Positions 4,665 through 46,178 of a stretch of 64,000 nucleotides of DNA are shown here, piece after piece. Below the pieces are notes generated by a model. That model ran no database searches. It saw only the letters and a program-made list of their open reading frames with translations, and was not told where the DNA came from. The DNA is from Cliona cf. orientalis (taxonomy: Eukaryota; Porifera; Demospongiae; Clionaida; Clionaidae). The stretch spans positions 2,790,001-2,854,000 of the forward strand of contig OZ005696.1 of NCBI GenBank assembly GCA_963930775.1, in the 5' to 3' direction. How positions within the stretch are numbered: position 1 is the first letter of the stretch; the number at the start of each line of letters is the position of its first letter. Made by a program: the position numbers and the translations under genes.

Positions 4665-4677
4665 GCGCGCACGCATT

Positions 4678-5776: not shown

Positions 5777-5779
<3 letters not shown>

Positions 5780-5833
<54 letters not shown>
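5780..5833. repeat. (TG)n microsatellite
   Basis: A run of about 27 TG dinucleotides. The copy at about 45101-45154 has the same length, which is notable because such runs mutate quickly. The ORF across it (Cys-Val repeats) is an artefact. Confidence 0.95.
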
Positions 5834-5836
<3 letters not shown>

Positions 5837-15289: not shown

Positions 15290-16206
15290 TTCCCATGTAC
15301 CGTGCTATATCTCTGACTAATGTATCAAAATTTATTCACAACCTTGCCTCTCACTGAAGCACGAAGTACCTTTTCACGAGTGCTTATTGATTTTGTACCA
15401 TGCTGTGTATTCATGTCACCTAATAAAAATGCATGCAGATCACATTTTCATTTGAAGTTTGCAATAAATTTATAACATGGTGTAGTAATAATTAAAGTAT
15501 TGTCGACATCCTTCAATACAAATGCAGGAATTGTGTTCATGTGGCTATAATTATTATTATATAGTTTGTAGCTTGTGACTCCAGGATCTGTGACCTGCCA
15601 CAGCAATTGAGCTAAGGGTACACGGAATCCTGCATGTCTTGATTGCGATCACCTTTTGACTATTGGCCCGGGGAGTTGATGGTTGATGTTCTATATCAAG
15701 CAGCTTACCATACTCATCCACAATAATAGCTATAATAGCTAGTACGTGACTAACAAGAGGTAACATTTCTAGTATATATACAATATCATGTATTGAAAGT
15801 ATCTGGCCAAGAATTATTGATCCCTATAGTATAATTATTATCATCCCAATCGAATCAGAATTAACATAAATTAAATGTGCCAGTAATTAATGGATGGAAC
15901 ATGAACATGCAGTGGCTACTCAGATCATTGCAGTCTTCAAATTACAAGTGCCATGAACTGTTGCTTGAGATGGTTTGCAATTGGCTATAATGCATCAAAA
16001 TTAATTTTCTAAAAAGTATGTTTCCAAGTCAGCCATAATAATACAATTATATAATAATAATATGGGGATAAAGGGGAAAATAGGCAAACATGTGAGATTA
16101 AATTAAAGTTAAAATTTTAATAATTATGGACACTGAAATATATACACAATTGATTGAATTGTCAAAATAGCTATTATTAATAATTATTAAAATACATAAT
16201 AATTAT
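15290..16206. other. Intergenic region between convergent gene 2 and NLR
   Basis: About 0.9 kb between the two stop codons. It is A+T-rich, with candidate AATAAA-type signals near 15420 for gene 2, and should hold the 3' UTRs and polyadenylation sites of both genes. An ORF at 15557-15766 (-) has no supporting feature. Nothing else is seen. Confidence 0.6.
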
Positions 16207-19200
16207 TCATGATAAACATTCGGAATCTTTGTAATAGACAAATTGACTATAACCTCCACCAACTGACTTTATAATGGAGATTCCTTTGCCAATGAGTTGA
16301 TCTTTATTCATCAGCAATTGTTCATTGACAGGATCTACAGTTATCACTTTAAGAGAAGAACACCTTAGCAATGCTTCTGTGAGACCATCAATAGAAGGTG
16401 GAAACTCAACCCATCTAACGTTAAGTTCACTTAATGTTGAATTCTCTGAAAGCATGCTGAGGAATTCATTAAAAAATGTATCAAGTCTAATAACATTGTC
16501 ACTGATATCAAGCTTCCGTAGTACATTATTTTGTTTCAATCCTTCAAAAAGCTTAACTCCAAACCAATCACTAAATGGATAAAACTCGGACACTATCAAA
16601 GTTTTGAGTGATGAATTTTTTGACAAGATAGTTGTAGTCTCAATTTGATCATGTGGTACACTGCTTAATTGTTCATACTGTATCCAGTTTGAAGACAGAT
16701 TCAATTCTACTAAGGCACACTTATTGCTTTCTAAGGCACTAAAGATACTTAGCACTCCTAGGCCACAGATATTATTGCCGCTTAAATCCAATTTCTTTAG
16801 GTGCTTATTCTCTTCTAAACCTTTTGTGAGTAAAACACAAACACCATCAGGTATATTACACGAGGATATGTTTAAACTCTTGATACTATGACTAGATTTC
16901 AATAACTGCTGGATGGCCAAACCCGTTGTTGGTGTTTCCACTGAGCTTTCGGCAATATCCAAATCTTCTAATGCTGGACAATCCTTCAATAAGTGAATAA
17001 TGTTAGCAAATAGTGCTTCTTCTTTAATTGAAAGTGTCAGAACCTTTAATGTGTTATAGATGTTTAAAACAGAAGAAAAATCTATAAATAATGGATGGCA
17101 TAAGCCCAAATTCAATATTTCTAAAGCACTATTACAACCTTTCCACTCTAGAGCATCAGCTGAGGTGTGCTTTGACACTTTAATTGGTGTTAGATCATTA
17201 CCAGATAAGTGAAGAGATTGCAAAGTGTTATTTTTCATTAGTGATGAGAGAATTAATGTTGCACCACAACTAGTGATGTCATTATGTTGCAAGTCAAGAA
17301 CCTTTAGACATTTATTGGATGTTAGCCCCATTGCAATGTGCTCACAGTCACAATCAGTTATGTGACAATAATCTAGTTTGAGTATCTCTAATATACTTGT
17401 TGATGACTTCAGAAGATTTTGATCAAGGATGATTTTATTCCTCGTGAGGATTAATTTCGATATGAAACCCTCCGTAGTTACTGCAAATAAAGTGATGAAA
17501 TCAATATCTGGTATGGTATAAGAGGCTGAATCAATACTGAGATCAAGTTCTTTGCAACATAAAAGTGATGGAGATATTAGGAAACTTTTGTCTTTTGGAT
17601 TCACTCTGATTGATGCACAAAAAAGTTTACATAATAGTGCCTTATCACCTGTGAACTCTGTAACAAAGGGCTGCTCACTTCTGCGCCTTTTCAGGCAGCA
17701 TCCTTCAATAATTTGTACACAGGTTAGGGAACTATTACGCACCGATGTGAAAAGGTGAGCAAGGGTTTTAACTGACAAAAGTGTAACACTAAATTGCAGT
17801 TTTTGTAATGTGTCATTTTTACTCAGTCCTTCAGCTATAGCATTAGCCATTTCATCCTGGAAATGTCCATTGAAACAGACAAGCTTAAGTGTTTGATTGG
17901 ATGATATTAATCTTTTGTACATGCGTGATAACATTGGATATGTAGAGCACTTATCATCATGAGATAAGTGCAGTTGATTTAGATTTGTAAATGGCTCAAT
18001 CATAATAGAAAATAATGCAAAACTTTGAACTGTGATGTCAAGATGTAATTCTTGTAAAGTTGTGACGAGATTTTCGGCAACAGTGAATTTCCCAGGATCA
18101 ACTTTTGCTGCATTGAAAAACATTTGGAATATTCTTTTCATTAAACCATCATTTATGTGCTTATTTACCGATATGCACAAACCAGATCTGCAATGTTTGG
18201 TAAGAACATGAAGCAAGAACAGTATGCACCAACTTTGAAGAAGTTCAACGTTAGGGGGCAGCTGCCAAACTTGACACTGTTTTTTGGTCAAAAGACTAAC
18301 ATGTATTAACGATTCTTTCCTTTGTATGATGCAAAAGTTAGTAACTTCCAAAGTGAGCAAATGTTTGCTGTGCATGAAAGAACACAGTAAGTCTTCAAAT
18401 TCATGAAAGCTGTAATCTTTTGTGGTGAAATTGACAGAAAGGGCGATAAGGGAACACTTTGGTATAGCTTTTGCTAATATTGCAGCAGCCTTATCATCAA
18501 CAATACCAGTTAAATTTAATGTTTTGATAGTTGTATTCCTTTCAAGCATCCCTCTTAGTGAGTGGTGCATATTCGGTTCTTGATTATGAGGCAGGGCATA
18601 TAATATTATACTGAATGATACATCCAGATTGATCACTGAAATATTCTCTTGTAGTTCTTCAAATAAAGATGCCAGCTGTTCATGGGTTAGACGTGTCCTG
18701 CTAAGATCAAAGCTCTGTAAATATTTTAACATTAATCCACCCACAGAAGTAACACAAGCATTGCACATTATCTTGTTCAGTAAGCAGAAGATGAAAAGCA
18801 TTGAGTTTTTATCAGTTATTGGCATTATTTTCCACGAACCATCCCTTGGTAGATCTTCAGCGTTAATAGGAATGTCATAGAGATCAATCTGTGAGTGTCT
18901 TTGCAGAGAAATTTGATTATTGATGCATATTGTATGCATTGCCGGACTTACCAAATGCATTTTAAGGAGACTTTGAACAAAACTGCTATTAGATATGTGA
19001 CACTCTCTGACATACAATTTAGATAAACTAGAATTCTGAGCTAATCCTACAATCAAGTGTGATGCAATGACATCGTTTGTCAGATTTACAATTGTTAGCT
19101 TCTTCAGAGATTTACAGCTCCTTAACATTCTTTCTATAGCATTTCCACATTCTTGAGGATTATCAATATCTACATTAAATGTTAAATTGAGCACTTGTAC

Positions 19201-22200
19201 AACATAGTCTCCTTTTGCCATTGATCTTAGTATTAGTAGACTAAGTGCTAATGTAGTATTAACATCAGAAAATTTCAAAGTAATACTTTTTTCACTCTTG
19301 TCAATAATAGTAGCAATTTCAATCCCTATAGTACTTAAAAGTTTGTTCAAATCTGTTGACTGTATTTTTACTACCTCTAGCTTCCACTGAGCACCTTCTT
19401 TGTCTCTGAAAAACAAAAATTCATTGATGAATTCCAGTTTGATAATGCTTCTTGCCTCAAATATCATTTTGATATTGCCGACAGTTAGAGTCCTGGGATG
19501 TAACGCTAGATGAGTTAGAGTATTATTTCCATCTAAACCAGCAGCTAAATTGCTGATCACTTTACTAGTTACTGGATTGCACAATTTTAATGTTTGCATC
19601 GATTTGATTCTGCTTAGGCTTAAATTAATGGTATCAGAATCAAGCAAAATCATCTCATTGGGAGTACTCTTTGTAGAGAATGAAAGTTCAAATTCTCTAG
19701 GGTAGTTACCATTGTCAATATCACTATTAAAACAATTAAGGACTCTGTTTAAATCTATAGATGATAAGTGAACTTCATGTGGTTTATAAAACAGTGAAGG
19801 CATTTGTTTTATCAAAAATTTAGTATCCATTAAGTCAACGTCAGAAATATGTCGCATAAGGTATATGACATCATCGACAACTTTAACAGTAAGAGGAGAA
19901 TGGCTGAGAGACAAAAGCAGACTACGAAGAGCATCATCACTTACGCCAGAAATGGTGATGATTATCGTATGCACATTTTGATTATGTGCCATTCCTCTTG
20001 CTATACACATTAGCACAGTATCATTTATAGAACTACAAAAATTCAAAGTGTTAATAGTCTTATTGCACATTAGCATCTGTTCAAGAGCCCGATTACCAGA
20101 ATCTCCAAGATTTAGTAACAATTGATTATTAAAATTTCTGGAAAGGTCAAGTGATGTGACACAACTGGAACTTTTTTGTAAAAAAGAGAACAGTGAAATT
20201 GCTAGAGGAGCTTCAAGGTAAGTGCATACAACCTGTTCAGAATCTGCAGATATCTTTATCATCTCCATACAGTAAAACTTATATAGTAAATGAGAAATAA
20301 ATCTTAATTGATATAAGTTGGTTTCATTAAATGTTTCCATTAGGTCAGTAATTGAATTGCTGCTTAGGTGGGATACTTCAATACTAAGGACTCTAACGAA
20401 ACTGTGTCTCCTAGACTGTAGGCCAACCATTATCCTTGCAGCTACAGTATTGCTTACAATTCCAAGTAGTTCTAAATTCTTAAGCAAGAGATTCTTTCGT
20501 ATTATCTGTTCTAAAGCATTCCCTAGAACTTCACTGTTATACTGCAAATCACCATCAATATTCAAGCACAGCGTGTTTAATGTGCTGCAACTTTCAAGAG
20601 AGTTGATCACACCAGTCATTGGTCGAAAGCAAAGATGAATGTCTAATCTACTTGGTACCGATATATTATTGGAAACAGTTACTTCATTAATAATGTTATT
20701 CAAATCAGCCTGAAAACAATTCTGAATGAAGTTTATCGCTTCAATGATTGAACTCTTTAGTTCCACTTTCCAACCACTATCAGTGCGTATGAATGACAAA
20801 AGATCTGAATGACTTATTCTCACTAAATAGGTATTTGATTCTGTAAGTAGGGTTTTGAGCACCAAAGGATTGCATTGTGAAAAATCTAGAGTTAGATCTT
20901 GCAAGATTTTGTTTCCATTTAATCCTAATACTATCCCTGATATTGAGCCACTATTAATAGCACCACTGTTTAGATTAATACTGGTAAGATGGTTATTAGT
21001 AGAAAAAATTCTCTGCAATGTTTGTCCATCGTTAGAACCACCAGTGAAGATACAATTATCCGACAAGTTTAGCTCGTGAATATTGTTGTATTGAAGGGAA
21101 TCTAAGAGAATATTTGCCCCCTCACTGGTAATTTGGTTACTACTCATATCAAGAAAATTCAGAGAACGGTTAGTATTCATTGCTAATCCAACAAATTGGC
21201 AAATTAAGTCTGAAATACTGCATGCTTGAATATCCAATCGTCTTATTACTTTACTGCTTTCCAAGTACATCTTTAAGGCTTGTCCAAGATCCTCGGAATT
21301 GGATGAAAGCTGATTAAAAGATATGTTAAGGTCTTCAAGTACAGGTAATACTTGTAAAGCTTGAAAGAGAGTTGTCATCCCGGAATCATTGATAAAATTA
21401 GCACGAAGATCTAGTTGTGTTAGTTGAGATGTAACAGCTAGTCCACTTGCAATTGATCTACATACATCATCTGAAATGTTGCATCCACTCAACACCAAAT
21501 GTTTTAGAGTAGGTATATTCATCAATAAATGCTCAATATGACAGATTCTTGGTAAGTTACAACTTTGTCTAGTCGATAACAGATTATTGCCTGTGAGATA
21601 TTGCAAATGTATAGTCTCAAGCTCACATGAAGTATCAAACAGTAATGGAGACCCATCATATAAACAGTCAATGTCCATAAGTGTTTTAGTAGTACGCCAA
21701 AGTTTGGTACTAGATGAGAAGTTCTTCGTCAATAACACTAGCAGTTGTGACCACAGCAAAGAGTCATGTATCTCGACGTTCCATCCAAAATTTCTGTAAT
21801 GACTTACAGTAAATATACCTGTCACAGTCAAACTATATAAGCTATGACACTCTAACAAGGTAGCCAATTTATTGAGTGTTCTAATCTTTAGTGATTCCAC
21901 ATCCACATAAAGATGTCTTGGAACTTGATTGCTTTCTAATCCTGTAATTAATGCTGAAGCAATGTCATTATTAAGGGAACCAGAAAACTTCAATACTTTA
22001 AGGGACACGTTTTTGCTCATAAACATTTCCATTGCTTCACACAAATCTTTGTCATTACTTCTTGCTATAATATTTCGGTTTTCCGAAAGATCTAATTCTT
22101 GCAGAGTATGATTAGTAGCTAAACATCTGAAAAGCCTGGTTATCAAGCTAATGTCACATCTGGAATGTAATTTCAAATTTGAGCAGGATAATAAAATAGA

Positions 22201-25200
22201 TTCTGCAGCACGATTACATAATTTCTGGATTGTGCAGATATCAGATACTGAACATACGATCCTAGGGAGCAGTGGAAACTCCCTTGGTGAGTAAAATGGA
22301 GAGTTTTCATCCGTTGACAGTGCTAAATACCAGTCTGAATTAGTGCTATGTCGACATATTGCAGGAAACTCGTACACACACATATTTAGTAAACTCCTAC
22401 TGGACTCAATTCCCTTAAGCAGTTTAGCTAAGTAAGAACAGTCATTACCTACGAAAGTTTCCAGATCATGGTCAATCATTAAAATTTTCACTGTTTTGAG
22501 ATACTTAGCTGACTTTAATCCATTTGACAGGTTTTCAGTTAAGGCAGTGTCAATACCATACAAAGACAAGTCTGATAATGAATTGCTACTTTCTAATATT
22601 CGTTCAAGTTGTTGACCTAGAGTGACTCTGTTACCAGTATCTTTGTTCATTCTTAGTGTAAGTACTGCTAATTTTGGTAGCAATGATTGTTGCACTGTCT
22701 GAGAAAGGACAGCCATTGCACTGTGATCAACATTATTAAGTTCAATACGTGTAATATTGTGAAATGGAATGTCTATTTGGGGCTGATACTGTTGAACAGT
22801 GCAAAGACCACAAAATAATTTGGATGATCTGCATAACTGTTTATAACTCCGTATTGCTGACTTTTGTTTTAACTTAGCTAGCATATTGACCACGTTAAAC
22901 CAGAAATCATTAACTGTACCTTTTCGATGAAATTTAACATCAGCAAATGTAATATCTGTTAGTGGACTATCATCCTGCGCCATTAACATGAAGAATTTTT
23001 GGATAGTATCAAAGCTTAGCTGCTGTTCACTTAACTCAATTGATTGAAGGTTGAATTTACACTTTAAAGCAGTAGCTATAGTCAAAGCAACTTCATCATT
23101 GATTGAATTTTTCACATTAAGGATTTGAAGATTTGATAGTAATGCTTGTTTGGCAGCTTCACATAGTCGTTTAGTAAAGTTAGGATCTGCTATACTGTCA
23201 GCAATAATTTGTTCATTATCAGAGAGATCAAGCTCTTGGATAGTTCTCATATGTTTGAATATGTTCTCTGCCTCACTAGCTGTGATGCCACTCTGACTAA
23301 CATTCAAATACTTTATTGAACAACTTGGCTCACTCAATCCCTTAGCCGCATAATTCCAAGTACCTTGAGGAAGCTTACATTGTGTCATGATTAACTTTTC
23401 TAGACATAAGCAATTCATTAGCAGTCCCTTGAGAGCAATACCGATATCTTTTGCACTTTGAAAGTTGTCAATACTGGACAATCTGACGTAATGATGAGAT
23501 AGATCCAAAAATGTTAGACTGGATTTGGCATTGTTTGCTAGTGCATTAAATATTCTTTCAAACTGAAAAATAGCTAGGCCATACTCTTCAAGTTTAAACG
23601 ACACAATGCAAAATTGTCCAGGGTCTCTATCAAGGTGGATATGCTGTAAATGAGGCCAAAAGCTGTACTCATGACTAACAACTAACTCCCAACCACATTC
23701 ATCTTTTCTACTAAACGAACAAAGTTGGTCTACATTAAAACTTTGAAGTCCGCAAGATGAAATTAAAATCTTTTTTATTCCATCTGATTTGAGCATGGAT
23801 AGCGACATCTCAAGAATCTGGAGTCCTTTATTAATAGCCAACCCCCTTGCAAAACCAGCTGCAATTATGTCATTAACATAAGTTGCTTGCAGATTAATTT
23901 TGGCCAAAGCATAATTACTTTTGAGAAGGTCTTCAAACACTGAAGCAGTTAACTCACTTAACTTCTCTTGCACCAATAACGATCCATTTTGTGATAGATT
24001 AAGCTCTTTAACACTGTTATTATGTTGAAGAGCTTGTAGTATGTGGATAACACTGTACGAATCCTTGGCATGTGTGAAAGACAGTGTTTTGAGCGCTGAA
24101 TTTCCACTAAGCCCAGCACGAAGGTGAGTTAATGCAGAGTCGGGTAAAATACATCTAGAGAATTCTATATGATGTAGCACTTTATTGAAAGCAAGCATCA
24201 TTTCCATCGCATATCCGAATCTAATATCCAATGTAACAGAGTTAAATAATAACATCTGAACATGTTTATCATCTCGTAAGGCAAGAAAAAAGGTAGCACA
24301 ATGATCATAAGGTTCCCTACCAGAAATGAGAATGCAAGTAACGGGAGCATACTCCAAATTGATAATATCACGGAGTTTAGATAGTAGACTGAATACTTTC
24401 ATACTACTTCCTGAATCACCATCCGATTTCCAAGAATGCAATAAATTATTCCTTTCTAATCGCACATCTTCACTGACATGCAGCTGTGATAAACTGCTAT
24501 GGTTATCAGCAGTGGCAATGACAGTGCAGATACTTTTTAAAGTTAAACAATTTTGATTCATAGAAAGACATTTCAATCCAGTATTCCTTTGCAATCCAAT
24601 TATCAGGTACTGAACGAGCTGTTCGTCAAGTGTTCCATCGGACATAATTAGTTCCCTAATATTCTGGTTAGTTGTCAATAATCTTTCTAATGCTGGTCCT
24701 ACTCGATCACACTGCCTACCAGTAGAAAGTGTTGGATTGCATGAAATATCTAACATCTGGATTGAATTGTTTTTTATCAAAGCTTCAAGCAGTAGTAGAG
24801 TGGCAAGACTTGTCAGTCCAATCCCCGATAAAGTTAGCTTTTGTAAAACAGTGGACGAGCATATCTTTGCAGCATGCTGAGAGATCAGAGAATCTGCATC
24901 TACATCTTTAATTATTAGGACTTCCAAATTTTGCAAACATTTTACACTTATAACTTTATTTACAATGCTACAATTTACTTTGCTTAATTCAACTTCTTTA
25001 ACATTCTCCAAGTATGAAGCAAGTCCCTCACCCAGCGACGCACTACACAGAACCACATTGTCAGAAGTTGTTGAAACACAGAACCTAGGTTCATCACGTT
25101 TAATATAAAGTTTGGGAACGTGACATAAAAACTCCAAATTTGGAGCTATGGATGTTGGCTCAAAATTATGCAATACTTGAAAATTTAATTCCTGAATACT

Positions 25201-28200
25201 GTCAAGCCATGGAAATAATTTTAAGTTATTAAGCACATCGGCATCATTTTTACTTAGGTCAAGATGGATAACTGATGATACTCTTAAATAAGGATAGGAT
25301 GTTTTCAACACATTATTCATTACTTTAATTGAATCAGCAGTTAGTGAGCAGTTGCTTAAATCCATTGACTCCCAGCTCCGATTAACAGAGCATAAAAAAT
25401 GGGTTAGAAGCCTGCAATCAAAAAGAGTCATTCTTTCATTACTAAGATTTAATACATTTTTGTCTGGTAAACTGTCATACAAAGAGTTGAAATATTTGAA
25501 TTGTTGTGATTCAAATATCAAGTTCATGTAGTACTTGAAACTATTAGCAAAGGTTATATGGAGATTTTCTCCCGATCTCGAGTTTTTCTCATGGGTGTTA
25601 TTAAATATCTTAAAACCCAAGGAGAATACAAATCTTAGAAGTTCTTCATTTAATGGGATCATTCCCGCAAAAAATAACATAAATTGTCGAAAGCGTGGCC
25701 TGTCTATATGCTGATAGAAGATATCCATTTGATCATCACGTTCAAGAGTTCTGCGGATGTACCTTGCAGCTAAAAATTCTTGAATGCTTAGATGTATAAA
25801 CTGAAAGTGCTCATCAGTATTCTTACCAATACTAGTTGCAGAGCTTAACAGTCCAAGGCAGCAACATTTAATAGTGAATTTGTTAAATTTTCCTCCATAA
25901 ATTGATTTTAGCTCGCTATAAGTAAAAACAAATTTATCCTTAATCAAGCAATCATACGCAAGACTATCAAGTACGTCTAGACGACCAGATACTGCATCAG
26001 GCAAATTATATATATCATGAAAATCCTCCTCCTCCAATTCAGTATTATTCTCAACCACTAAAACTTCACGTGCTAGCATGTCAAGTAAAAAGGTTTCAAT
26101 AAGCTTTGTCATAGTAGCCGGTAGGGACACCTGGGAATCAGGTGATTTTGCTGACCGTGACTCATAAACATGAATCATTATGATACAAACTAGAGGAATG
26201 TAGCACAGTGAGGCTATATCTTCTCTTTCCTCCAATTGGCTAATTAAATTTGTAGCAATGGATATATCTTTAATTTGTTTCCTTATGCAAGAGTACATTT
26301 GCTCTTTATTAAAACCAAGCACTTCAATATGCCTGTTGATGATACTTGGAGCTTTTTTAAGTTCATTGGATGTATAAGGCCGAGATGTAATCCAAATGGC
26401 ACATTTTGTCAACTTCTTACCACGAAATATTTTAATAAATAAAGAATCTGATCTATGACGCTGGTCATAACTAAGTTCATCATAGCCATCAAAAATAAAT
26501 GCAATGTTTTCACCATTATTTTTCTGAATATACTGAACCACTTTTGTTTTCAGATCTTGATCGTCTCCTGGAAGAAAATCTTCAATATCTTTAGCTTCTC
26601 TTAAAGAAGCTTGTCTCAAAGGCACTAGCAACACTAGGTCATACTGCTTAAACAATCGATTTTCAGCCCATTCTTTGCAAGCATTAAGGGTTAATGTTGT
26701 CTTACCAATTCCAGGAGCTCCATCCATCAGTACTTTTGGTGCCTGGAGCTTGTTAGAATCTGGTGAAGGAACAGGATCAAGAATAGTAGAGACATCTACC
26801 TCTTTCTTGTATGCCAAAATGCTATCAATTTTACCATATGCATGGTCATATTCTTGAGATTCTGACATTGTGCAGTCCGATTTAGTACTACTGTCGCTTA
26901 CCAAAACTACTCTAGTATATTCTTGTGGATTACTCTCTGGCCAATCACGCTCCATAAATGGTATCATATTAATATACATCTCTTTCAAGTCCTTTCCGTA
27001 ATCTCTGACATACTTAGGTACAACATGACTGCTTGCTTTTGTTTTAGTAAATGATGGGGCTAAGAAAAGAAAGCAATTATGAAAAATGGTTTGCAACTGC
27101 AGCCAATAATAATCATTGCAAACAAATCACATTCATAGCTTAAGGGATGAATTACCGTAGGTCGGGTTTTAATTGCGAGTATCTATTAATTGCAAATTAT
27201 GAGTTTTTCTATATACATTTCGCAATTAATAGATTCGCAAACATAAACATGCACGTATACTACAGTACGGTATGGGGTCGTCCATCGCAATTATTGGATT
27301 CGCAATTTGGCCTGACTTGACTAGAACGCAATTATTAAACTACGCAATTGAAACCTGTCCTACGGTATTATAATATTTATTGACATTCTCGCAAAGGTGG
27401 CTATGCTAGTATCTTTCTGCGAGTACTAGTGTGAGAATATGATAGAAAATTGTGATGAAGTGACAAATATTTGGTTGGTAAAGGTCTACCTCTCTTGTAT
27501 GCACTCACTACTAAGCTTGATTAAACTCTACCAAAATGAATGCACAGGAGTGCAGAATTAACCCTCACCGCTACACGCGTGCATGACTCATGCTCATGCA
27601 CATCTATAGCATATCTCAGTGCATGTGTCTGCCTGCTCAATATTGGGAGTATTGAACTAGGTACATACTACTATATATACCCCTCCAGTTTTCTTCAGAA
27701 TCAGTGCATGATATAGGGTAGGGGGAAGGCACCTGGCTATGTCACTGTAACTATTAACTGAAAGCCTCTGTGACTGCTTAAACTGAATTATGCACTTGAG
27801 AGCCACTGCCTGTTTACACTGTCACTGCACTAACAACTGACCAACAAGGCACGGAATGGCAACCACAACTGCACATTACTATACCACTGGGCAGGACTTA
27901 ACGTGACCACTCTTCCTTGATGCCTGGTAATCCTCAGATTCGTCCTTCTCTCAGACGACCCTTACCATACGGACAGACGAACGGACGGATGGACAAACGG
28001 ACGGACAGACGGACGGACAAAAAATCGCCAAACGATTGCAGTAACCCTATGCCTACGCTTTGCAGCGAGGGTTAATGAATGCACAGGAGTGCAGAACCCT
28101 CACCGCTACATGCATGCATATTATAGTATGGCTCACTCTGTGCACGTTCAATAATATCAGCAATATCAGGAGTCAGGAGTATTGAACTACATACCCTACA

Positions 28201-32480: not shown

Positions 32481-32910
32481 GCTTCTTACACTGATAAGCC
32501 AATCTTTAGAGCAGATTTTTTAGAATTTGTGTGGTCCGTAGGAGGCGGGCTGGCGCGCGATACTAGACCACCCACACTGTCGTCATAATAATTACGTCAT
32601 GATAAGATTATTATGTACATAGCCCTGCCCCTCCCATTGATGACCTTTACCCAACGGTTACGGTACAACTGCACGATTTGTATATTATAAATTTGGTTGT
32701 CAGATAACGAGCTTTTGTGTTACACTAGATATATTTTACATGGCTCAGGATGATCCATTGCCATGTATCTAGCCCCGTCCCCAGTCTGGGAGTGCATTAG
32801 TCTCGCGAGCCAGCCCCTCCTACGCGTAGGAGGGGCTGGCTCGCGAGACTAATAAACTGCACCTTTTGATGGGTGTGGCTCGTAACAACTAAACCCTCGA
32901 CTAAACCACA
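32481..32910. promoter_or_regulatory. Shared divergent promoter of the NLR and gene 3
   Basis: Only 430 bases separate the NLR start codon (minus, 32480) from the gene 3 start codon (plus, 32911). The two short blocks shared with the gene 2 leader are here at about 32742-32763 and 32861-32885. An upstream ATG at 32740 opens a 10-codon ORF (stop TAG at 32770-32772) starting with the same six codons as in gene 2 apart from one substitution. A perfect 58-bp palindrome lies inside (32796-32853). Bidirectional function is inferred from layout. Confidence 0.55.
32796..32853. repeat. Perfect 58-bp palindrome in the divergent promoter
   Basis: Two 29-base arms are exact reverse complements with no spacer, centred on TACGCGTA. 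The sequence is GC-rich (GCGAGCCAGCCCCTCC). Related single arms occur near 6901-6990 and 32540, so it may be a fold-back element. It ends 57 bases before the gene 3 ATG and would form a hairpin in the leader RNA. Confidence 0.9.
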
Positions 32911-35900
32911 ATGGCGAAGCGAGCGGTACCTAGCAGTCAAAAGGGTGAGTGTAGATGAAAAGAATGTGTTGGACGGCGTACCATGGCTAGCTAGCTGAAG
33001 CCATTTAATAATAATTTATGCCAGTCAGTAGTGTCCACTCTACTCCATGTCAGGAGCTCTAGACTGAACAGGAGGGGGGCGGGGCGGGCTTGTGGGTGGT
33101 TTGGTAGCTAGACCTATACATTTATATTGAAAAAGTGAACCTTTTGCGTTTGTGAATCAGTGTTGTCTACACTATCCAGCCCTAGCTACCCTTCACTATT
33201 ACTAATGTGTATGAAGCGGTGAAGACAGTGAGGCTGAGCTGGAGAGAGCTGGCCGGGGAGCTGCTGGTCTGGTATGACTTGAATAGTGATGGTCGAAAGA
33301 AGCTAGATGCCATCGAGCGTGAGAATATCTCTGATGAGTCTCGTCTGCTAGCTGTGGTGGCAGCATTCCTCCGGGGGGAAGGTCCCTTCCAACCCTCATG
33401 GAGGATGCTGATTCATCGACTACACGAAGCAGGAGAGACCGATGTGGCTGAAAGGATCAAGACCAATGCAGAACGGCACCAAGGTGAGTGGGTCTCGGTG
33501 TGGAGAGGGAGATGATGATTAAGTATAATAGTATATGCACCCTAGCAGGAGCTCCTGACCCTAGCGTATTAGGATCAGATTGTTGTGTGCTTGCGAGAGC
33601 ATGTTCTAAGCATGTATACCGTATAGCCAGAAATATTATTGGTGGGAATTAAATTTGGCAATTGAGCCCAAAATCACTATTGCAAGAATGTTGGCGGATT
33701 TAAATTTGGCGGTTGTAATATAGACCGCCAAACCGCCAAATTTAATTCCCAGCCAAATTTTCCGGCTATACGGTAATAATATTATTATTATGTGTGTGTG
33801 AGTTGTGCTATGTGTGTACAGTATACCTGTACACCTAGTGACCGAGTAGCTTAATGAAATCATTTTTGTTTGACTATGCACTTACAAATGCCTACGTGTC
33901 AACACAATGATCAAACCTCAAGGGGTTATCCTAACAAACTTCATTAGCACTGGCTATATTCAAGTGTTACTGCATGCACATAACTCTGTCCCCCCCCCCC
34001 CCCCCCCCCCCCAGACCCCACTATGACAGCGGATAATGTCGCTCAAATACTGAACAAGACACTATGGCCAGGAGACAAATGGGAGAAGGTGATGGGTGGA
34101 GGTGGACTTGATATTCCGAAGCCACTGCGTGCGAAGATCCAGTGGAGATACTCCACTGACACAGAGAGGAACTACGCTTGTGCAGACTACTATGTGAACT
34201 GCCATCCTGAGGCTGAGTGGAAAGATATTACCGCCATACTATATTTTGTGAAGGAATTTGCCTTATCAAGAGAAACCAAGTCATTTATATCAACTGGTAA
34301 AATTACATAATAATATTATATCATAGCCACTGATACCGTATATGTAGAAATTTTCACCAGGAGAAAATTTCCCCCATTTCAGCACCTACTCTCATTGGCG
34401 CAACTTCATACTAATTTTTGTCCTGTATTAAAGATTACATATGCATTGGTGAAAAATTTTCCACCTAATTTTTCAAAAGTACATGTAACTGGGCTTGGCA
34501 AAATTTAACTTTTTATGTAGCTATACATCATGTTATACTACTGATATGCTTGTACCCCCAAGTTATGGTGGGTAATTTTCATGGGGTGCTAATTTTCGTT
34601 ATTTTCGTGGTTAACTTGGCAGTCACGAAATTTTCCCACCCACGAAAATTAAAGCCTACTGTAACAGTGATATATGAATCCATGATGATGGGCATGGCCA
34701 CAAACATCGTGGCAGCGCAGCCAACACTTTCCAGTATTAGCAAGCAACAGTAGCCATTGTTATCCAGCTGATGGTGTCTTCAACACTAATATTCTTCTAT
34801 CTCATGCTATTTATCCAAGTCTCTGTAGGTATGGCTTAGTAACAATGAAGATCGCGGGCGCGTGTATCAATTATATCATCGCTTGTGCAGCAGTGCCACG
34901 CCCCTGGACTGGTTGCTGTCACGAAATTTAAAACCACGAAAATTCATTTTGAGGGCCTTTTCGGACTTTCCACGAATATTAGCCCCCACGAAAATTACCC
35001 ACCATACGGTATGATGAATTAGCTACTGTACAACTACTGTGCCCATTAATTAGCACTATCTAGTTTGTACGGTGGCCGAGAAGGACACTGCCGCGGCGGC
35101 CAAAGCCGCCGTGGGCCGCCCAAAAGCCGCCATGGGCCGCCAAAGGGCCGCCCATCGGCTGCGGCTGGCCGCCGCGGCTCAGCCGCTCCCGCCAATCTGT
35201 TTGAAAATCGATTGTCTAGCTTACAACTAGTTAAATTAGACTATTATCCTGCACGCATGCGCAAGCGGTCAGTTAGTCAGTCATCGCCCGCACGATATGC
35301 ATTGGCATCTGGGCACAATGGGTTATAACGCCGATCAAATATAACAAAGAAACGGACTCGGTCTCGATCGATACTGGGTACAGGGGCTAAAATATTTGTT
35401 GGACACTCCTATCAACCGCGTGCTTTCTACCCATGCGCACGCAGTACCGACTTACCAGACCACGCCCACCGCAGCGTTTAAGCGCGCGCTCCATATCTGC
35501 TAAGCACGAGAACGATCACCACCGATAAAGAACGGGCGGTATACATCACATAAACCTTTCCCTCTCAATTGCCCCCCACCACAGCGTTTAGTTATTAGCT
35601 AATACCTTTTTTCTGACAAAAACGCGGAGGGCTGAGTTCCCGAGTAAACGTAATGATACACCTAACTATGGTGACCTAACGTTGTCCAGTTAACCATTCG
35701 TGAACCGAATATCGATTTTAAATAATTGGCGGGCGCGGCTGAGCCGCGGCGGCCAGCCGCAGCCGATGGGCGGCCCTTTGGCGGCCAACGGCGGCTTTCG
35801 GGCGGCCCCAACGCGGCCTTGGCCGCCGCGGCAGTGTCCTTCTCGGCCACCGTAAGTTTGCCATGCACCCTACATACCCAGTGGCATGAGCTTGTGTGAT

Positions 35901-38900
35901 TTTGTGTGAGGTCTAGTAGTGATATTGTCCACTCTCTTCCCCCCAGACCCCACTCTAACAGTGGACAATGTCAGTCGTGTCATGGAGAAGGTGGAGCCAA
36001 AGGTAAAGGCGCAGGTGTGGGTGGATGCTTGTTATGCTCCAATGGAGGTGAAGAAGATGGAGGAGTTATGCACGTCTGGGAAGGAGGATGAATGTGCTGA
36101 CTTATATGTCAACTACAACCCACATTCTTCATGGGAAAGGCTTGCCAAGTCACTATACCGTCATCACCAGGTGGCTGCAGTTGAGGAAGTGAGGTCATAT
36201 TTCCCTCCTAGAGGTGAGCCTTGCTTTATGCATGTTGCTGTGTACATGCTAATAACAAGAATGGGGAGATAAGGATACATACCGGTACATGTACCTCAAT
36301 AAAACTTTTGTTAAATTTTTTTGTGGTATGATTATTTTGTCCTCATTGAATAAATGAATTGTACAAACATTTAATTCTGTCCTTGCACAGATCTTACTAT
36401 TACTACTGAGAGGCTAATGGAACTATTTGCACCAATGAACCCTGAGGAGGTAGATGAGCTTGGTGATGAAATGCATCTAGAACTACCACAGTCTGAGATA
36501 GCCAGAATACAGAAGGACTACCAGAGCCCCACCCAGAGGAAAGAGGCCTACCTAGACCTCTATGTCTATCAACATCCTTGCCCCACTTGGAGCGATGTTG
36601 CCGACGTACTCCGCAATTGTGCCAATCTTCGCCAACAGGCTGACTTGGTCGAAAATACTTATGTCAAAGGTACAGAAGACGCACTGTAGTGAGACTGTTG
36701 TGTACGTATCAATTATCAACACTGCATGAGTTGCAATGAGAAGCTCTGTATAATATTGTTATGTACCCAGCCATCCTGTCATTGCTGAGTGTTCTGTGAT
36801 ACTAGTTGACCATGCTCAGTTACCGTAAAGTCTGGTTAATAAGCGCATGCACTTATCACTCTCGGTGGTAATAGATATAGACTACGTAAATGTTTACGTA
36901 GTCTATAATAATATTATCTATGGAAACATGTACCTATTAGACGATATGTGGTTAATAGAGTGAAGTTTTGGCCCCGCCCACTGCCAGCACATTCGAGCAC
37001 TCAATCACAAAACTAGCAAGTTATGAACACAGCGATTCTTGGAATAAGCTCAGTACTAGTTCATGGGAGTATGATTGGAAGCCATTGCTGGAAGAAAACT
37101 GTGGAAAAATAGCCGACTTATTTGGCAAGACTTGCTTCATCGAGGTCAAGAGTCCAAACCCGTCTCAGTGGAACATCGCAGTGTTGAGTATAGCCAATTT
37201 TGTGCAGCTGGCTATCTGAAAATAGGTTGATAAATTATAGTTCTAGCCATGTAGAGCATGGAAAACTCGATGAATATTACTGTCATCTTTATTGGGTGCA
37301 TGTGCTTATTAGACAATACTTAACTAGAGCTCTGTAGAGCACATACCCCGCGCATTGCGCCTGCAGATCTAGTGCCTGTTAATGACCTTTACCTACATAG
37401 CTAGTTATGCACACGAGCAGAAAGCACATGGCCTATATGGGTAGGTTTGATAGGCGTGGTCAGAAAAACGCAGTGTTTACGGCGCTCGTAGGCTTCACCG
37501 AACAATTCTAGGCATAATCGAGCCAGTTTTTCGACGATTGCGATGTATTCTTTGTACTTATGAGTCACTCAGATGCCTAGATCTCCAGATCTGGCGATTT
37601 TCGTGTTGACGACAAATGACACAGACAAAACCGATTGCTTTACCCCTTGCTGCGTATGCGTGTGGGGTAACAATAGGAAGGAAGCATGCACTTATTAAAA
37701 AATATGCACTTAATAAGCATGTGCACTTATTAACCAGACTTTACAGTATGTACTGGAGTATATAATTATGTTGTACGGTAATAATATTATCTATACACAA
37801 GTTTGCAGCTTATTAGCTCTGCATGTTTATTTTTGCGGTTGATCATTTATCCATGTGAGGAGAATGCAAAAGTATGTAGGATACATGTATCTCCAAAATT
37901 TACGGTAGTACAGTAGTATAGTTTATCAATGTGATACACACATACATTGTACACTAGTGTAATGATGTAATTAGGACACACATGCAGGGCTTCATTTAGG
38001 GGGGGCAGGGGGCGCTCGTCCCCCGTTGATGAACTTCCCCTTCCCCCCCCCCCCCCCCCCCCCCCCCCCCGTAAATATAGTATTATCACACACATAAAGC
38101 CAAGAAACCACCTTAACATGAATGATAAGAGCACACAAAATTTAGTGCCTGAGAGTGCACCAGAAGCAATCTTAGCTAGGGAGTCCAGACCCCTCTAGAG
38201 ATCGTGTGCTTACATACATAGAAAGAAAATTAGTCTTGCCCCCCCTCCCTTGATCTCGTACTAGCTTGGGAAACTTTCTAAATGAAGGCCTGACATGCAT
38301 GCCTTTTCCACATAAACGACATCACTAACCAAAAATTATATTATACAATTGCACAATGTAGCTACAATAATGGCATAGGAAGCAAATTTTGAGTGGTCAA
38401 GTCCGTCATTGGTAAAGGGATTGTAACCACATAATACGAATATTGCTTTGTTGGGGCATGCAAGGTGCACATAGTACCAATGACCTTTACCAAAAGATCG
38501 ATCAGAAAAGTGATCAGGCCATGGCCTGATCAGCCTAACTAGCTCGTATACAGCCCTGTGTTACCGTAGGTCGGGTTTTAATTGCGAATATCTATTAATT
38601 GCGAATTGCGAGTTTTTCTACATTTCGCAATTAATAGATTTGCAAACATAAACGTGCACGTAGAGTAGGGTTGGCATATTTCGGACAGCTAAGAAAAGAC
38701 AGCGTTATATCACAGACAAACGAGCAGCACTAGATCGCGAGTATGCAACCACAGATAGGCCTAAACATTACCTACTAAACGAGCCCTTAACCGTGGCCCC
38801 ACGTACTTCCGTTCGTGCAGGGCATGCGCACAAAGTACCGCTGGTTCCGGAGGTAGAGAACGGACAGTGTCGACCATTACCGGACGAAGGTGAAAAACAA

Positions 38901-41900
38901 CACATAAAAAAATCGCGGCTGCGGTTATCAATATATGACACATAAATGGCATCAAATGCATCATGAACAACATCCTTCTTACATCCTGCCTTTAGATTTG
39001 AAGATTCACCCAAAAATTGTGAAATAATACATGAATACATAAAGTAATGCAATATATGCATTGTCCAGAAACTACCTCTGAAAGTTCTTTACAAAAAAAA
39101 ATCCGGTTTATGCTTATAATAAGGTCAAAAAATTCTGGAAAAAATTCTAAAAATTCTTCATACATTCTAGTATGCACATACCAAATGAAAAAAACATTCA
39201 TCAAAAATTGATGCCGCTGTGCAATAATAGTATAAATCTTAGATGCCATGAAAAAACAGCTTCTTGAAAAAAATACGAAAAAGTTGCAACTGTTTAGAGC
39301 AGTGTTGTGCAGCTTCTGTGTGGATGCACACCACAAGAAATGAGATATAGCTAGTACTTACATGGCCCCTACCTCATGGCGAATGGTGAAAGATTACGTA
39401 ATACCATTGGCCGTATAAACGCAATTATGTGCGAGGCGTCCAGTAACTGCCTCCGTCCGATAATACCCTACCCTACTCTATACTACAGTACGGTACGGGG
39501 TCGTCCATCGCAATTATTGGATTCGCAATTTGGCCTGACTTGACTAGAACGCAATTATTAAACTACGCAATTAAAACCCGTCCTACGGTATGTGTATACA
39601 CATGTGTAGCAATGTTTAGCCACAACATTTATGTATACATGTAATATGTGTGTGATTATTTGCTGTGTGTGGCGGATATTCAGTAATATTTATATGCACA
39701 CTTGGTGATCTTTACCGAATTATTAATTTTGTACAGTATCCTTGTAGTTTCCATTTTAATTAAGTACAAGCCTTTTCCTCACAAACTTCTGTACACCAGA
39801 ATGAGCTACATGCAGCTCACCTATAGACTTACATAAGGTTCTTTGTTTCTACCATTAGGTGTAGTGTCAGACTTTTGACAGGGTAGGTAACTCTTGGTGA
39901 TCTTTACCAAATAATATTATGAATAATTGTTATACATGTACATGTAATTTCAACGACCATTACCAATTAAATGAGCAATGCATATCTGTACACCAGAATA
40001 AACTAGCTCATCTGTAGACTTATATAAGGTTTATTTTGTTCCTACAGTTAGCGAAAGAACCCAGCAGTGCTTTGATGCAGCCATGATGGAGGGTGAAGTG
40101 TCGTTACGAAATGGCAGCGCCTTACTCTTAGGGGTGGGAGGATCAGGAAAAACGCACTTCCTTGCAGCTTTCCTCAAGGAAGATCCTCCATCGATGCGAG
40201 AAAGCACTCCATGTGCGAAGAAGCCAGTGAGAACTGTAGCTCACTGTAAGGCAGGAGTGAGCGACGACCACTTTGTACGAATCACCGACGACCACTATTC
40301 CGACATGCTTGTAACAACAGCTGAGGCATTTCCACATTCACCCGATGGTGAAGATGTCGCTAAGCCTTCTACCCAAGCCGAGGCTAAGGATGACTTGAAC
40401 AGTTTAGCTAGTTCTTCATCTCCTAGTCAGAAGGAAACCATGAGGCAGCCATCGTCAGCTGTCAAAGTAGAAGCTTCGCAAAGAGAGGAAACATGGTGTG
40501 TTCGTCGTGCTATGAAGAGGCAGTACCTGAGTCGAATGCAGGCAGGAGCAAACAAGAAATCAGATCTTAATGACAAAGATTTGCTTGACGTCGATGATAC
40601 AGGAGGCCAGCCTATGTTTCATGAGGTCCTACCTGTGTTCATCCAAAACACCATGCTTGGCATGCTGATGGTGAAGCTCAATGAGCCCTTAGACAGCTTT
40701 CCGCTAGTCGAGTTCTACACCAGGGGAGAACGTGTTGGAGAGCCATTCGATTCACCTTTTACACACTTGGATACACTTTGCCACTGCATGAGGGTGATAC
40801 GATCAACCTGTGACCGCAACACATGTCCAAAGATTGCATTTGTGGGCACGCACAAAGACCTCCAGCACGAGTGCCCACAGGAGAGCATAGAATTGAAGGA
40901 GGAAAAGCTTCGAGGCATTATACCTCAGGAGATGGAGGATAATATCATAGTTCATGGAGAGTCACTGCTGCTTGCTGTCAATGTAAAAACACCAGAGAAA
41001 GAAGATGAGAAAGTCATATCCATTTTGAGGGACAAAGCTATTCTAGAATTGCGTAAATTGAAGCCGAAAAAGGTGCCACTTCGATACATTCCCTTGGAAA
41101 TGGCCTTTCAGCGAATCGCCAAGGAGCAAAGAAAATCGGTGATGAGTTATGATGAGTGCTTTGAAGTAGCAGCTACCTACAATTTCACACGAGAATCATT
41201 TGAAGTGGCACTGAAGTACCTTCATGGGCTGAAGCTAATCTTCTACTATGAAGAAGTTCTTCCTGATATTGTGTTCATCGATGCCCAGGCCATCCTTGAC
41301 AAAATCACTGAGCTTGTGGTGCACAGCCTATCATTGCAAGCTAAGTCAAGTGGTAAGCTTCTTGGAGCACTCAAGAAATTTGTGAAACATGGAATTGTAA
41401 CAGTCGAGATGCTCGAACAGTTCTCGTCTCATTACGTCCCTAAGCTTTTCATGAAGGAGCAGCTGATCTTGGTCCTTAAGCACCTGAGGATTATGGCTGA
41501 GGTTGGGAAAGGTGAGTATCTCATGCCCTGCCTCCTGAGGAAACAAGGCATACCACGTCTTGTGGCAGGTGCTTCATCGCTAGCTATCCCCGCTCTTCTC
41601 TTCTACTTTGGCCGAGACGGCCCCAAGCTTGGAGTTTACTGCTTTCTCCTATCTTCTCTCATCATGGAAGCCAAGTGGCAGCTTCTTGAAGTGGGTGGCT
41701 ACCCTGTGCAAGTTTCTCGCAATCGAGTGCAATTTGCTCTTCCTGGAAAAACTACGGGCTGCGTGACAATAACTGATCCATTTTCCTCCTATTTTCATGT
41801 CATTGTTGAGCTTGAGCCTCCCGAGGATGCCAGCGCTGATGGAATCCAACAAATCTACAAAGAAATATGTCCATCAATCCGCGAGATAATTCTCACTGGG

Positions 41901-42696
41901 ATACGAAAGGCATTACATAAGCTGAACTACAATAATTTGATTCCCGAAATTGCCTTTCCTTGCATAAAGCATGACGACCTTCATCCAGCTATTGTTTCAG
42001 AAAAGCTAAGACGTCTGATCTGCACCCATGACTGCCGAGTCTACAGCGAAATGACCAAGCAACATAAGCTCTGGCTTGGCCATAAAGGTACCTCTAGAGT
42101 GTGTACATGTATAATAATATTATGCTTATGTTACAAACTTGTACATAATTTATTTTGCCATATCTCCGTGCTCTGTGTTGATAAGGTTCTCTTTCAATAA
42201 GTAGTGAGATACTATTTGACATTTCACTTTCTTCTGTTGTAAATATAGGTGAACTAATTTCTGAAAATCAAGGAGCTTCTACTGACGGTACACCACCTTC
42301 ACAAACTGCCATGAATATTGGTAAGCAATAATTGAATTTCAACTTTATGGTAGGATCATATGGCATATCTCTTATACAGACACTATTCCAGCCCTAAAGA
42401 ATTTATCAACAATGAAGACAGCCGAAGGAAAGAAGATCAAGATCATAGAGACAGTTGCACCGAAATGGAAATCTTTGGGGTTCCAGTTGGAATTTGACGA
42501 GTTCGGTTCAAAATTGGACACGATCAAAGCCAAGAATAATAATGACCCAGAAGAATGCTGCCGTGAAATGTTCCAGCACTGGTTGAAGGGGAGTGGAGTA
42601 AGACCTTGCTCGTGGCGCAAACTCATTGAACTGCTCGAAGATTGTGATTTTGAGGTGCTGGCTGAACGGGTGAATTCTGTTTTTAGTGCAAAATAA
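32911..42696 (+). CDS. Gene 3: 4xDD-ROC-COR-DD ROCO GTPase
   Basis: Predicted exons: first exon from ATG 32911, then DD1 ending 33483, DD2 34015-34296, DD3 35947-36213, DD4 36391-36669, ROC-COR 40048-42087, linker 42249-42320, DD5 42380-42696 (TAA). Unlike gene 2, DD1 is open throughout and complete (SWRELAGELL ... PSWRMLIHRLHEAGETDVAERI). Its 5' junction is uncertain. The donor homologous to gene 2 (exon 32911-32944) does not keep frame into DD1. A weak donor at 32926 with the acceptor before 33186 does, giving about 1,189 residues. Skipping DD1 (32944 to 34015) also keeps frame. ROC motifs match gene 1: GVGGSGKT, DTGGQ, THKD. The DD4 to ROC-COR intron is 3.4 kb and full of elements. It is head-to-head with the NLR, so co-expression is plausible. 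From 39322 on it appears identical to gene 1. Confidence 0.82.
33619..33773. mobile_element. MITE, 155 bp, TA target (CCGTATAGCC family)
   Basis: Inverted termini CCGTATAGCCAGAAA and ending TTTTCCGGCTATACGG, flanked by TA. Sub-terminal GAATTAAATTTGGC is also inverted near the right end. It sits in the DD1-DD2 intron of gene 3 and is absent from the same intron in genes 2 and 4. Confidence 0.8.
34566..35005. mobile_element. MITE, ~440 bp, TA target (ATGGTGGGTAATTTTC family)
   Basis: Inverted termini ATGGTGGGTAATTTTC and GAAAATTACCCACCAT, flanked by TA. Several internal CACGAAAATT / AATTTTCGTGG repeats give a nested inverted structure. The ORF at 34550-34753 runs through it without a known domain. 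Located in the DD2-DD3 intron of gene 3. Confidence 0.75.
35068..35854. mobile_element. GC-rich element with ~150-bp terminal inverted repeats, 787 bp
   Basis: It starts TACGGTGGCCGAGAAGGACA and ends in its reverse complement. The inverted repeats extend about 150 bases through a GGCCGCC-rich tract, in strong contrast to the A+T-rich surroundings. AGTTTG flanks both sides (35062-35067, 35855-35860). The same intron position in gene 2 aligns as an empty site. The middle contains no recognised transposase. The 6-bp target duplication does not fit Tc1/mariner; I cannot name the superfamily. Confidence 0.8.
36877..36906. repeat. Short perfect hairpin in gene 3 intron
   Basis: ATAGACTACGTAAA and its reverse complement surround a TG centre. 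It is absent from the corresponding region of gene 2 near 11300, so it is probably a small insertion or solo tip of an element. Confidence 0.6.
37326..37690 (-). repeat. Dispersed repeat (TTACCCC family), inverted copy
   Basis: It begins CTAGAGCTCTGTAGAGCACA and ends GGGGTAAC; the interior has GACGACAAATGACACAGACA and GATTGCTTTACCCC. It matches 9229-9638 in reverse orientation. Located in the DD4 to ROC-COR intron of gene 3. Confidence 0.6.
37985..38292. mobile_element. hAT-like non-autonomous element with poly-C tract
   Basis: Termini CAGGGCTTCATTTAG and CTAAATGAAGGCCTG are inverted repeats of the CAGGG...CCTG type often seen in hAT elements. ACATG occurs on both flanks, but a full 8-bp target duplication is not clear. 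It contains GGGGGGGCAGGGGGCG and 28 consecutive Cs (38043-38070). Confidence 0.6.
38564..39588. mobile_element. Outer MITE of CCGTAGG family, split by a nested element
   Basis: The left part 38564-38660 and right part 39481-39588 together equal one ~207-bp element like that at 27155-27365, with termini CCGTAGGTCGGG and CCGTCCTACGG and TA on both flanks (38562-38563, 39589-39590). An 816-bp second element plus its TA duplication separates the halves. It lies in the DD4 to ROC-COR intron of gene 3. Confidence 0.85.
38663..39478. mobile_element. Inner 816-bp TA-target element nested in a MITE
   Basis: The left terminus GAGTAGGGTTGGCATATTTC and the right terminus (reverse complement GAGTAGGGTAGGGTATTATC) are imperfect inverted repeats, flanked by TA at 38661-38662 and 39479-39480. 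Minus-strand ORFs of 70, 97 and 114 codons overlap it, but I recognise no transposase motif. Its right end recurs at 1-157. Confidence 0.8.
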
Positions 42697-45992: not shown

Positions 45993-46178
45993 AACTGCAG
46001 CTTCAGTCTCCCAGGATGCTCAGCTTTAATTTCAGCTCCGTCAGCATCAGTCAATCCAAGTCTCTCAGAAAGAGCCAGGCCCTTCCCACTCGTGCATTCC
46101 ATCAGCTATCATTCCAACGTGTCGTGGAGCCCCATCGCTTCCAGCATCAAGCACCTGGTTATACTGGTATATATCCAT
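45993..46178 (-). pseudogene. Relic NLR first exon, second copy
   Basis: Matches 6672-6857, including the same 4-bp frameshifting insertion relative to the intact exon 32480-32299. It lies head-to-head with gene 4. Confidence 0.8.

What the first reader, a model, noticed from the sequence alone, without database searches (positions are those of the whole stretch)
16207..42696. Head-to-head pair: giant DD-NLR and multi-DD ROCO share a 430-bp promoter
The NLR start (32480, -) and gene 3 start (32911, +) are divergent and both proteins carry death domains. The same arrangement is traceable at genes 2 and 4, where an NLR exon-1 relic lies head-to-head. Head-to-head paired immune receptors are known in plants (RPS4/RRS1). 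An NLR paired with a ROC-COR death-domain GTPase is not one I know of in animals. Inference: a co-expressed sensor/signalling pair.
Basis: partly seen in the sequence, partly recalled or inferred. Interest (0 to 1): 0.85.

Follow-up and report, generated by a model that had tools for sequence, protein, structure and literature searches.

The report
Sponge immune receptor beside ROCO gene
In a sponge genome, a giant immune-receptor gene and a multi-death-domain signalling-GTPase gene start back to back 430 bases apart; the layout seems to have arisen once and been copied in tandem, but the same genome also has about thirty loci where both kinds of protein are joined in one chain, which hints that the two work together.

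Summary
At 16207-32480 (-) lies an open three-exon death-domain/NACHT/LRR gene (3,718 aa). At 32911-42696 (+) lies an open eight-exon gene (1,185 aa) with four N-terminal death-domain-like modules, ROC-COR and a C-terminal death domain. Start codons are 430 bp apart; the modelled introns are GT...AG. The exon-1 relics at genes 2 and 4 are real but not independent: the locus is a tandem array of ~38-39 kb units, two of them 99.9% identical. Outside the array, 0 of 75 listed ROCO 5' ends have a divergent copy of this NLR's first exon within 10 kb (capped lists), and one NLR-ROCO adjacency is near chance. So this is most likely a single-origin pair amplified by tandem duplication; co-expression is untested. 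Unexpectedly, the genome gives separate evidence linking NLRs and ROCO GTPases: at 28 loci one continuous match runs NACHT-LRR-(ROC)-COR, 17 of them without a stop. In 31 of 32 such loci (partial and split ones counted) a death domain of the window NLR's subfamily follows; one sampled locus continues into SH3-SH2-tyrosine kinase. The species is very probably Cliona cf. orientalis.

The parts
32299..32480 (-). NLR exon 1: start codon and first half of the N-terminal death domain
   Evidence: DD 31.2 bits when joined to exon 2
29432..29553 (-). NLR exon 2: second half of the death domain
   Evidence: GT/AG borders
16207..27059 (-). NLR exon 3: NACHT plus very long LRR region, single open frame
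32481..32910 (.). 430-bp spacer between the two start codons, putative shared promoter; CpG o/e 0.86 against 0.52 for the window (93rd percentile)
32796..32853 (.). 58-bp perfect palindrome with two TCTCGCGAG arms; a dispersed repeat (40 places listed, 3 of them in the array)
32911..32944 (+). ROCO gene 3 exon 1 (start codon)
33217..33483 (+). ROCO gene 3 exon 2: death-domain-like module 1 (15.9 bits, under cut-off)
34015..34296 (+). ROCO gene 3 exon 3: module 2, no Pfam Death hit; profile comparison links it to modules 3 and 4
35947..36213 (+). ROCO gene 3 exon 4: module 3, predicted six-helix bundle
36391..36669 (+). ROCO gene 3 exon 5: module 4 (Death 21.3 bits, just under cut-off)
40048..42087 (+). 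ROCO gene 3 exon 6: ROC GTPase and COR
   Evidence: dN/dS 0.19-0.28 against five array copies
42249..42320 (+). ROCO gene 3 exon 7: linker
42380..42696 (+). ROCO gene 3 exon 8: C-terminal death domain (29.2 bits) and stop
1..9644 (.). Part of the neighbouring tandem unit, 99.75% identical to 39322-48984 (3 mismatches, 21 gap bases)
6674..6857 (-). NLR exon-1 relic upstream of gene 2, with a frame change
45995..46178 (-). NLR exon-1 relic upstream of gene 4 (duplicate of the former)
7143..15299 (+). ROCO gene 2; frame change inside its module 1; repeated element between modules 3 and 4
46722..53498 (+). ROCO gene 4 from its module-1 exon on (counterpart of gene 2, without the element)
54415..64000 (-). 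Third NLR copy (its exon 1 is at 71143-70961, right of the window), broken by one stop and two frame changes

Best explanation
Two members of separately expanded innate-immune families, a DD-NACHT-LRR receptor and a 4xDD-like-ROC-COR-DD GTPase, came to lie head to head once, on chromosome 8 of (very probably) Cliona cf. orientalis. The unit (NLR, ROCO, second ROCO) was then duplicated in tandem, which made the further pairs and, by copying a ROCO with its upstream flank, the exon-1 relics. Shown: open gene structures, spacer, array, near-identity of two units, dN/dS below 1 for both proteins, no recurrence found elsewhere in this genome. Inferred: the 430-bp CpG-enriched spacer works as a bidirectional promoter and the two genes are at least partly co-expressed. 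Inferred: the NLR is a sensor that oligomerises on ligand binding, exposes its death domain, and signals through death-domain assemblies in which ROCO GTPases take part. The last step rests on the joined NACHT-LRR-(ROC)-COR proteins of the same genome, not on anything specific to this pair; I do not claim that this NLR needs this ROCO.
For: Gene models without internal stops; domains. Tandem array with 5 mismatches in 38.2 kb between two units and a third unit 96.5% identical over its first 16 kb. The spacer as DNA was found only in the array apart from the dispersed palindrome (40 of 72 candidates scored). Divergent NLR exon 1 within 10 kb: 6 of 7 ROCO 5' ends in the array, 0 of 75 outside. 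Six of 6 fetched ROCO paralogues outside the array match all four N-terminal modules (matches broken in L019 and L020), and 0 of 6 has a significant NLR exon-1 match in the 8 kb upstream of ROC-COR (best E 0.28). Expected divergent NLR-ROCO neighbours under random gene order 0.09-0.79. dN/dS of ROC-COR 0.19-0.28, of the NACHT part 0.27. Joined proteins.
Against: No transcript data, so both first exons and promoter use are predictions. Hit lists are capped, so a distant recurrence could be missed. Three NLR relatives do lie 17-29 kb from ROCO 5' ends of an older cluster at C8:8.04-8.17 Mb; one of them (C8:8038187, -) is divergent from a ROCO 29 kb away, though another NLR lies between. The relics retain exon 1 at about 70-75%, so the pairing may be older than the present array. 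The intact pair has stayed open through at least one duplication.
Confidence: 0.62

Rival explanations
1. A dedicated co-expressed sensor/signaller pair, like plant head-to-head NLR pairs: the NLR detects, the adjacent ROCO is its obligate partner, and selection keeps them divergent on one promoter.
For: Short CpG-enriched spacer, both open and constrained, co-duplicated in the array, NLR-ROCO joined proteins elsewhere. The spacer palindrome carries two TCTCGCGAG arms, 9 of the 10 bases of an element reported to drive bidirectional transcription and conserved in vertebrates (PMC6192621, abstract).
Against: No recurrence found outside the array. The NLR's nearest relative, at C5:9.46 Mb, has no ROCO-module match and no ROC-COR match in the 5.6 kb upstream of its first exon. 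The NLR death domain is 16-22% identical to its neighbour's module 1 and C-terminal DD, but 41-54% to four death domains that follow other ROC-type proteins. The palindrome is a dispersed repeat. In the third unit the ROCO exon-1 ATG reads CTG and a 325-bp stretch with inverted ends sits in the spacer.
Confidence: 0.25
2. The two near-identical units are an assembly duplication of one unit, so only one intact pair exists.
For: Only 5 mismatches in 38.2 kb; the assembly paper reports 81 haplotypic duplications removed by hand (PMC12639293, section 7).
Against: One unit boundary carries a ~1.13-kb element that the others lack, and flanking units are 1.4-3.5% diverged, so an array exists in any case.
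Confidence: 0.2
3. The pair is a recent split of a joined NACHT-LRR-(ROC)-COR-DD gene.
For: The joined proteins align to both partners, and the death domain after them belongs to the NLR's DD subfamily with the same exon break.
Against: Only 24-25% identity to the window NLR and 21-22% to the window ROC-COR, while the window ROC-COR is 53% identical to an older multi-module ROCO; the multi-module ROCO family is large.
Confidence: 0.04

Closest known systems
Sponge NLRD genes (DEATH-NACHT-LRR), e.g. in Dysidea avara (PMC12909245, passages read)
   Same: Domain order and lineage-specific expansion; near-identical neighbouring NLR copies are reported there too.
   Different: The NACHT-LRR exon here is about 3,600 aa. 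The passages read mention no divergent ROCO partner; COR occurs once in that text, in the Fig. 2A legend of NLR architectures.
ROCO proteins with death domains (DAPK1-type ANK-ROC-COR-DD, MFHAS1; recalled)
   Same: ROC-COR followed by a C-terminal death domain.
   Different: Four extra N-terminal death-domain-like modules; no kinase or ankyrin hit in the exons scanned.
Plant head-to-head NLR pairs (RRS1/RPS4, RGA4/RGA5; PMC9528088, passages read)
   Same: Divergent immune genes over a short shared spacer.
   Different: The partner is not an NLR; no evidence of one-to-one dependence; single origin.
Cnidarian and molluscan proteins joining ROC-COR with TIR, death domain or kinase (PMC5094078, PMC9334734; passages read)
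   Same: ROC-COR joined to innate-immune domains; one anemone gene also joins death domain, SH3 and kinase.
   Different: The passages read show no NACHT in the ROC-COR proteins; here NACHT-LRR and COR run in one continuous match at 28 loci.

Membership tests
DD-NLR (NLRD) | NACHT domain | tested here: met
   76.5 bits, cut-off 26.7
DD-NLR (NLRD) | LRR region after NACHT | tested here: met
   LRR_6 32.9 bits for the whole protein, cut-off 23.4
DD-NLR (NLRD) | N-terminal death domain in the same gene | tested here: met
   31.2 bits; splice borders consistent; no transcript seen
ROCO with death domain | ROC followed by COR | tested here: inconclusive
   COR-A 32.1 and Roc 19.2 bits, both under cut-off in this copy; paralogue at C8:2753836 COR-A 35.6, over cut-off
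ROCO with death domain | C-terminal death domain | tested here: met
   29.2 bits, cut-off 22.6
Joined NACHT-LRR-ROC-COR proteins (other loci) | NACHT and COR in one frame | tested here: met
   NACHT and COR-A over cut-off in 3 of 3 frames scanned
Joined NACHT-LRR-ROC-COR proteins (other loci) | ROC domain | tested here: inconclusive
   No Pfam Roc row in those 3 frames; ROC inferred from blastp to the window ROC-COR exon
Plant-type paired NLRs | Both partners are NLRs | tested here: not met
   No NACHT hit in the ROC-COR exon or modules scanned
Plant-type paired NLRs | Head-to-head with short shared spacer | tested here: met
   430 bp
[quoted passage not shown]
   needs expression and genetics
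Conserved divergent gene pair | Recurrence at independent loci of the genome | tested here: not met
   0 of 75 listed ROCO 5' ends outside the array (capped lists)
Conserved divergent gene pair | Conservation in other sponge species | not testable with these tools
   no other sponge genome is among the collections offered

The most novel reading that the evidence does not exclude
Sponges use a general NLR-to-ROCO signalling module. NACHT-LRR sensing is wired to a ROC-COR GTPase and a death domain either in one chain (28 continuous NACHT-LRR-(ROC)-COR matches in this genome, nearly all followed by the same death-domain subfamily, some by an SH3-SH2-tyrosine kinase) or in two chains encoded by a divergent, co-expressed gene pair such as the one in this window.
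Probability: 0.4. Interest if true: 0.85.

Novelty: new variant of a known kind. Interest (0 to 1): 0.6.

Why it matters
How animals without adaptive immunity wire their very large NLR repertoires to signalling is open. Single-chain NACHT-LRR-ROC-COR-DD proteins would make a ROCO GTPase (the LRRK2/DAPK1 class, recalled) a direct partner of NLR sensing. My literature searches (listings, with passages of some papers) did not surface such a link in animals beyond a COR label in one figure legend. The window pair is an intact two-gene test object for that idea.

Tried and rejected
A further exon at 36971-37216: no Pfam hit and only one weak piece (E 0.003) in the six fetched paralogues; left out. 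Module 2 fold: pLDDT 50.9 with a mixed helix/strand model, inconclusive. Module 4 profile against PDB sequences: no death-domain hit; ROC-COR exon: no hit. Foldseek for module 3: supportive only, all E >= 3. NLR dN/dS for residues 3000-3600 (0.53) is contaminated by repeat-to-repeat HSPs, and so is the whole-exon value 0.51; I used the NACHT part and the first five 600-residue windows, 0.31-0.51. The ROC-COR query of script 38 was in a wrong frame; I repeated that part with the right frame. Ten literature searches: none of the titles and abstract beginnings listed describes an animal NLR-ROCO gene pair.
Full report
Where this is. The window is G000:C8:2790001-2854000 of a 216.8-Mb genome in 149 contigs. 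Lengths of contigs C4, C5, C7, C8, C9, C11, C16 and C17 match the eight corresponding chromosomes in Table 3 of the genome note for the sponge Cliona cf. orientalis (217.17 Mb, 307 scaffolds; PMC12639293, section 7 and passages read). The contig counts differ, so the species is very probable rather than proven.

The observation. I rebuilt both genes by eye from splice sites. The NLR has three exons (32299-32480, 29432-29553, 16207-27059, minus strand), 3,718 aa, with a death domain split across exons 1 and 2, then NACHT and LRRs. The ROCO has eight exons (32911-42696, plus strand), 1,185 aa; its seven modelled introns are GT...AG. Exons 2-5 each carry one ~90-aa module: modules 1 and 4 are Death matches under the cut-off, 2 and 3 have none, and module 3 alone is predicted as a six-helix bundle. 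Profile comparison links module 2 to 3 (99.0%) and 2 to 4 (95.7%), but 3 to 4 only at 23.6%. The clear death domain is the C-terminal one. 'Multi-DD ROCO' is therefore fair, with modules 2 and 3 resting on homology and fold rather than on a family match.

The array. Positions 1-9644 and 39322-48984 are 99.75% identical; the unit from 28.5 kb left of the window to 9644 matches 10780-48984 with 5 mismatches and 21 gap bases in 38.2 kb; a third unit from 48978 is 96.5% identical for 16 kb and then more diverged. The order repeats as NLR(-), ROCO(+), ROCO(+). The second ROCO of a unit (genes 2 and 4, and the one 31 kb left of the window) carries the exon-1 relic, 68-75% identical with one frame change, 285 bp from the gene 2 start. 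Genes 2 and 4 also have a frame change inside module 1. In the third unit the NLR has an in-frame stop and two frame changes, the ROCO start codon reads CTG, and the 639-bp spacer holds a 325-bp stretch with inverted ends. The outermost ROCO of the fetched region (module 1 at C8:2746080) has no exon-1 match. Intact pairs are thus two, and these two are nearly identical.

Chance and recurrence. Of 82 module-1 (5' end) hits of the ROCO family, 7 lie in the array and 75 outside. A divergent exon-1 hit within 10 kb exists for 6 of 7 in the array and 0 of 75 outside; exon-1 hits in any orientation within 10 kb are also 0 of 75. A divergent NACHT hit within 30 kb exists for 1 of 75 outside (C8:8068402, 29 kb, with another NLR between). 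The closest NLR outside the array is 46-47% identical (C5:9.46 Mb); it shares the split death domain, and the 5.6 kb upstream of its first exon hold no ROCO module or ROC-COR match. Three NLR relatives lie 17-29 kb from ROCO 5' ends of an older cluster at C8:8.04-8.17 Mb: linked, but no head-to-head start pair was seen in the 60 kb sampled. With 25,502 genes (PMC12639293), 175 listed to 490 candidate NACHT loci, and 82 ROCO starts or 25 as my guess at independent clusters, random order predicts 0.09-0.79 divergent NLR neighbours. One origin is unremarkable.

The spacer. It is CpG-enriched (o/e 0.86; window 0.52). Its most striking feature, a 58-bp perfect palindrome with two TCTCGCGAG arms (2 in the window, 0.03 expected), is a dispersed repeat: one search lists 40 places, 37 of them outside the array. 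The related TCTCGCGAGA element is reported to activate bidirectional transcription (PMC6192621, abstract). That is a lead, not evidence.

Selection. ROC-COR dN/dS of gene 3 against five array copies is 0.19-0.28; three of the five are near-copies of one another. The NLR NACHT part against the third copy is 0.27. Both proteins have been under constraint.

The unexpected part. NACHT and COR-A hits share one open frame at four places of the capped family lists. Searching with one of these frames gave 34 rows from 32 loci (32 scored of 915 candidates): 28 run continuously from before the NACHT to past COR-A, 2 are partial and 2 split; 17 of the 28 have no stop inside, 11 have one to three (my tally). 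Three of three frames scanned have NACHT and COR-A over their curated cut-offs; Roc gave no Pfam row in them. One frame matches the window NLR (1.7e-29) and the window ROC-COR (8e-19) in separate parts of one chain, which is why I read a ROC there. In 31 of 32 loci a death-domain exon of the window NLR's subfamily follows within 3.5 kb on the same strand; of 132 exon-1-like hits 33 lie within 4 kb downstream of a listed COR hit on the same strand and none upstream. Joined with its second exon, that death domain is over the Pfam cut-off in 2 of 2 tested (L030 27.1, L032 34.4 bits). At C7:2005476-2012268 SH3 (66 bits), SH2 (55) and a tyrosine kinase (275) follow on the same strand; that all of it is one gene is inference. 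A kinase match lies within 6 kb downstream on the same strand at 10 of 32 loci, upstream at 4, on the opposite strand at 0. A sampled close match of the NLR's exon 1 (C5:2424831; L033) sits behind an ankyrin-repeat protein with a sub-threshold Roc match (21.9 bits, cut-off 27) and no COR hit; its death domain scores 35.8 bits and is 54% identical to the NLR's.

Reading. The window NLR thus carries a death domain of a kind that this sponge often places after ROC-type proteins, and the sponge also builds NLR and ROCO parts into one chain. This supports a shared pathway. It does not show that the two neighbours are partners: the death domains compared are of different subfamilies (16-22% identity). 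I therefore hold the specific pair to be a single-origin neighbour pair amplified by tandem duplication, probably with a shared promoter, and the NLR-ROCO pathway link to be the more interesting claim.

Noticed in passing
L030, L031, L032 and one search places (e.g. C4:2353145-2357503, C17:5818063-5822286, C7:2005476-2009879): Family of NACHT-LRR-(ROC)-COR continuous frames, 32 loci listed, 31 followed by a death-domain exon.
   Followed up: yes
L032 with L034 (C7:2005476-2012268): NACHT-LRR-(ROC)-COR and DD followed by SH3, SH2 and tyrosine kinase on the same strand; the kinase reads NFE where DFG is usual.
   Followed up: partly
C17:2316562-2325063 (-): Ten tyrosine-kinase matches in rows that all give a 2,925-aa open frame: apparently many kinase domains in tandem in one frame.
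   Followed up: no
window 9645-10779: About 1.13-kb repeated element between modules 3 and 4 of gene 2, absent from the other units; relatives about 46 kb left and 107 kb right of the window's first base.
   Followed up: no
window 32796-32853 and 39 other listed places: Dispersed short perfect palindrome with TCTCGCGAG arms.
   Followed up: partly
C8:8.04-8.17 Mb (L023-L028): Older multi-module ROCO cluster (53% identical ROC-COR) interspersed with relatives of the window NLR; no head-to-head start pair where sampled.
   Followed up: partly
window coordinates 71266-71590, right of the window (L012): 325-bp stretch with inverted ends in the third unit's spacer.
   Followed up: no
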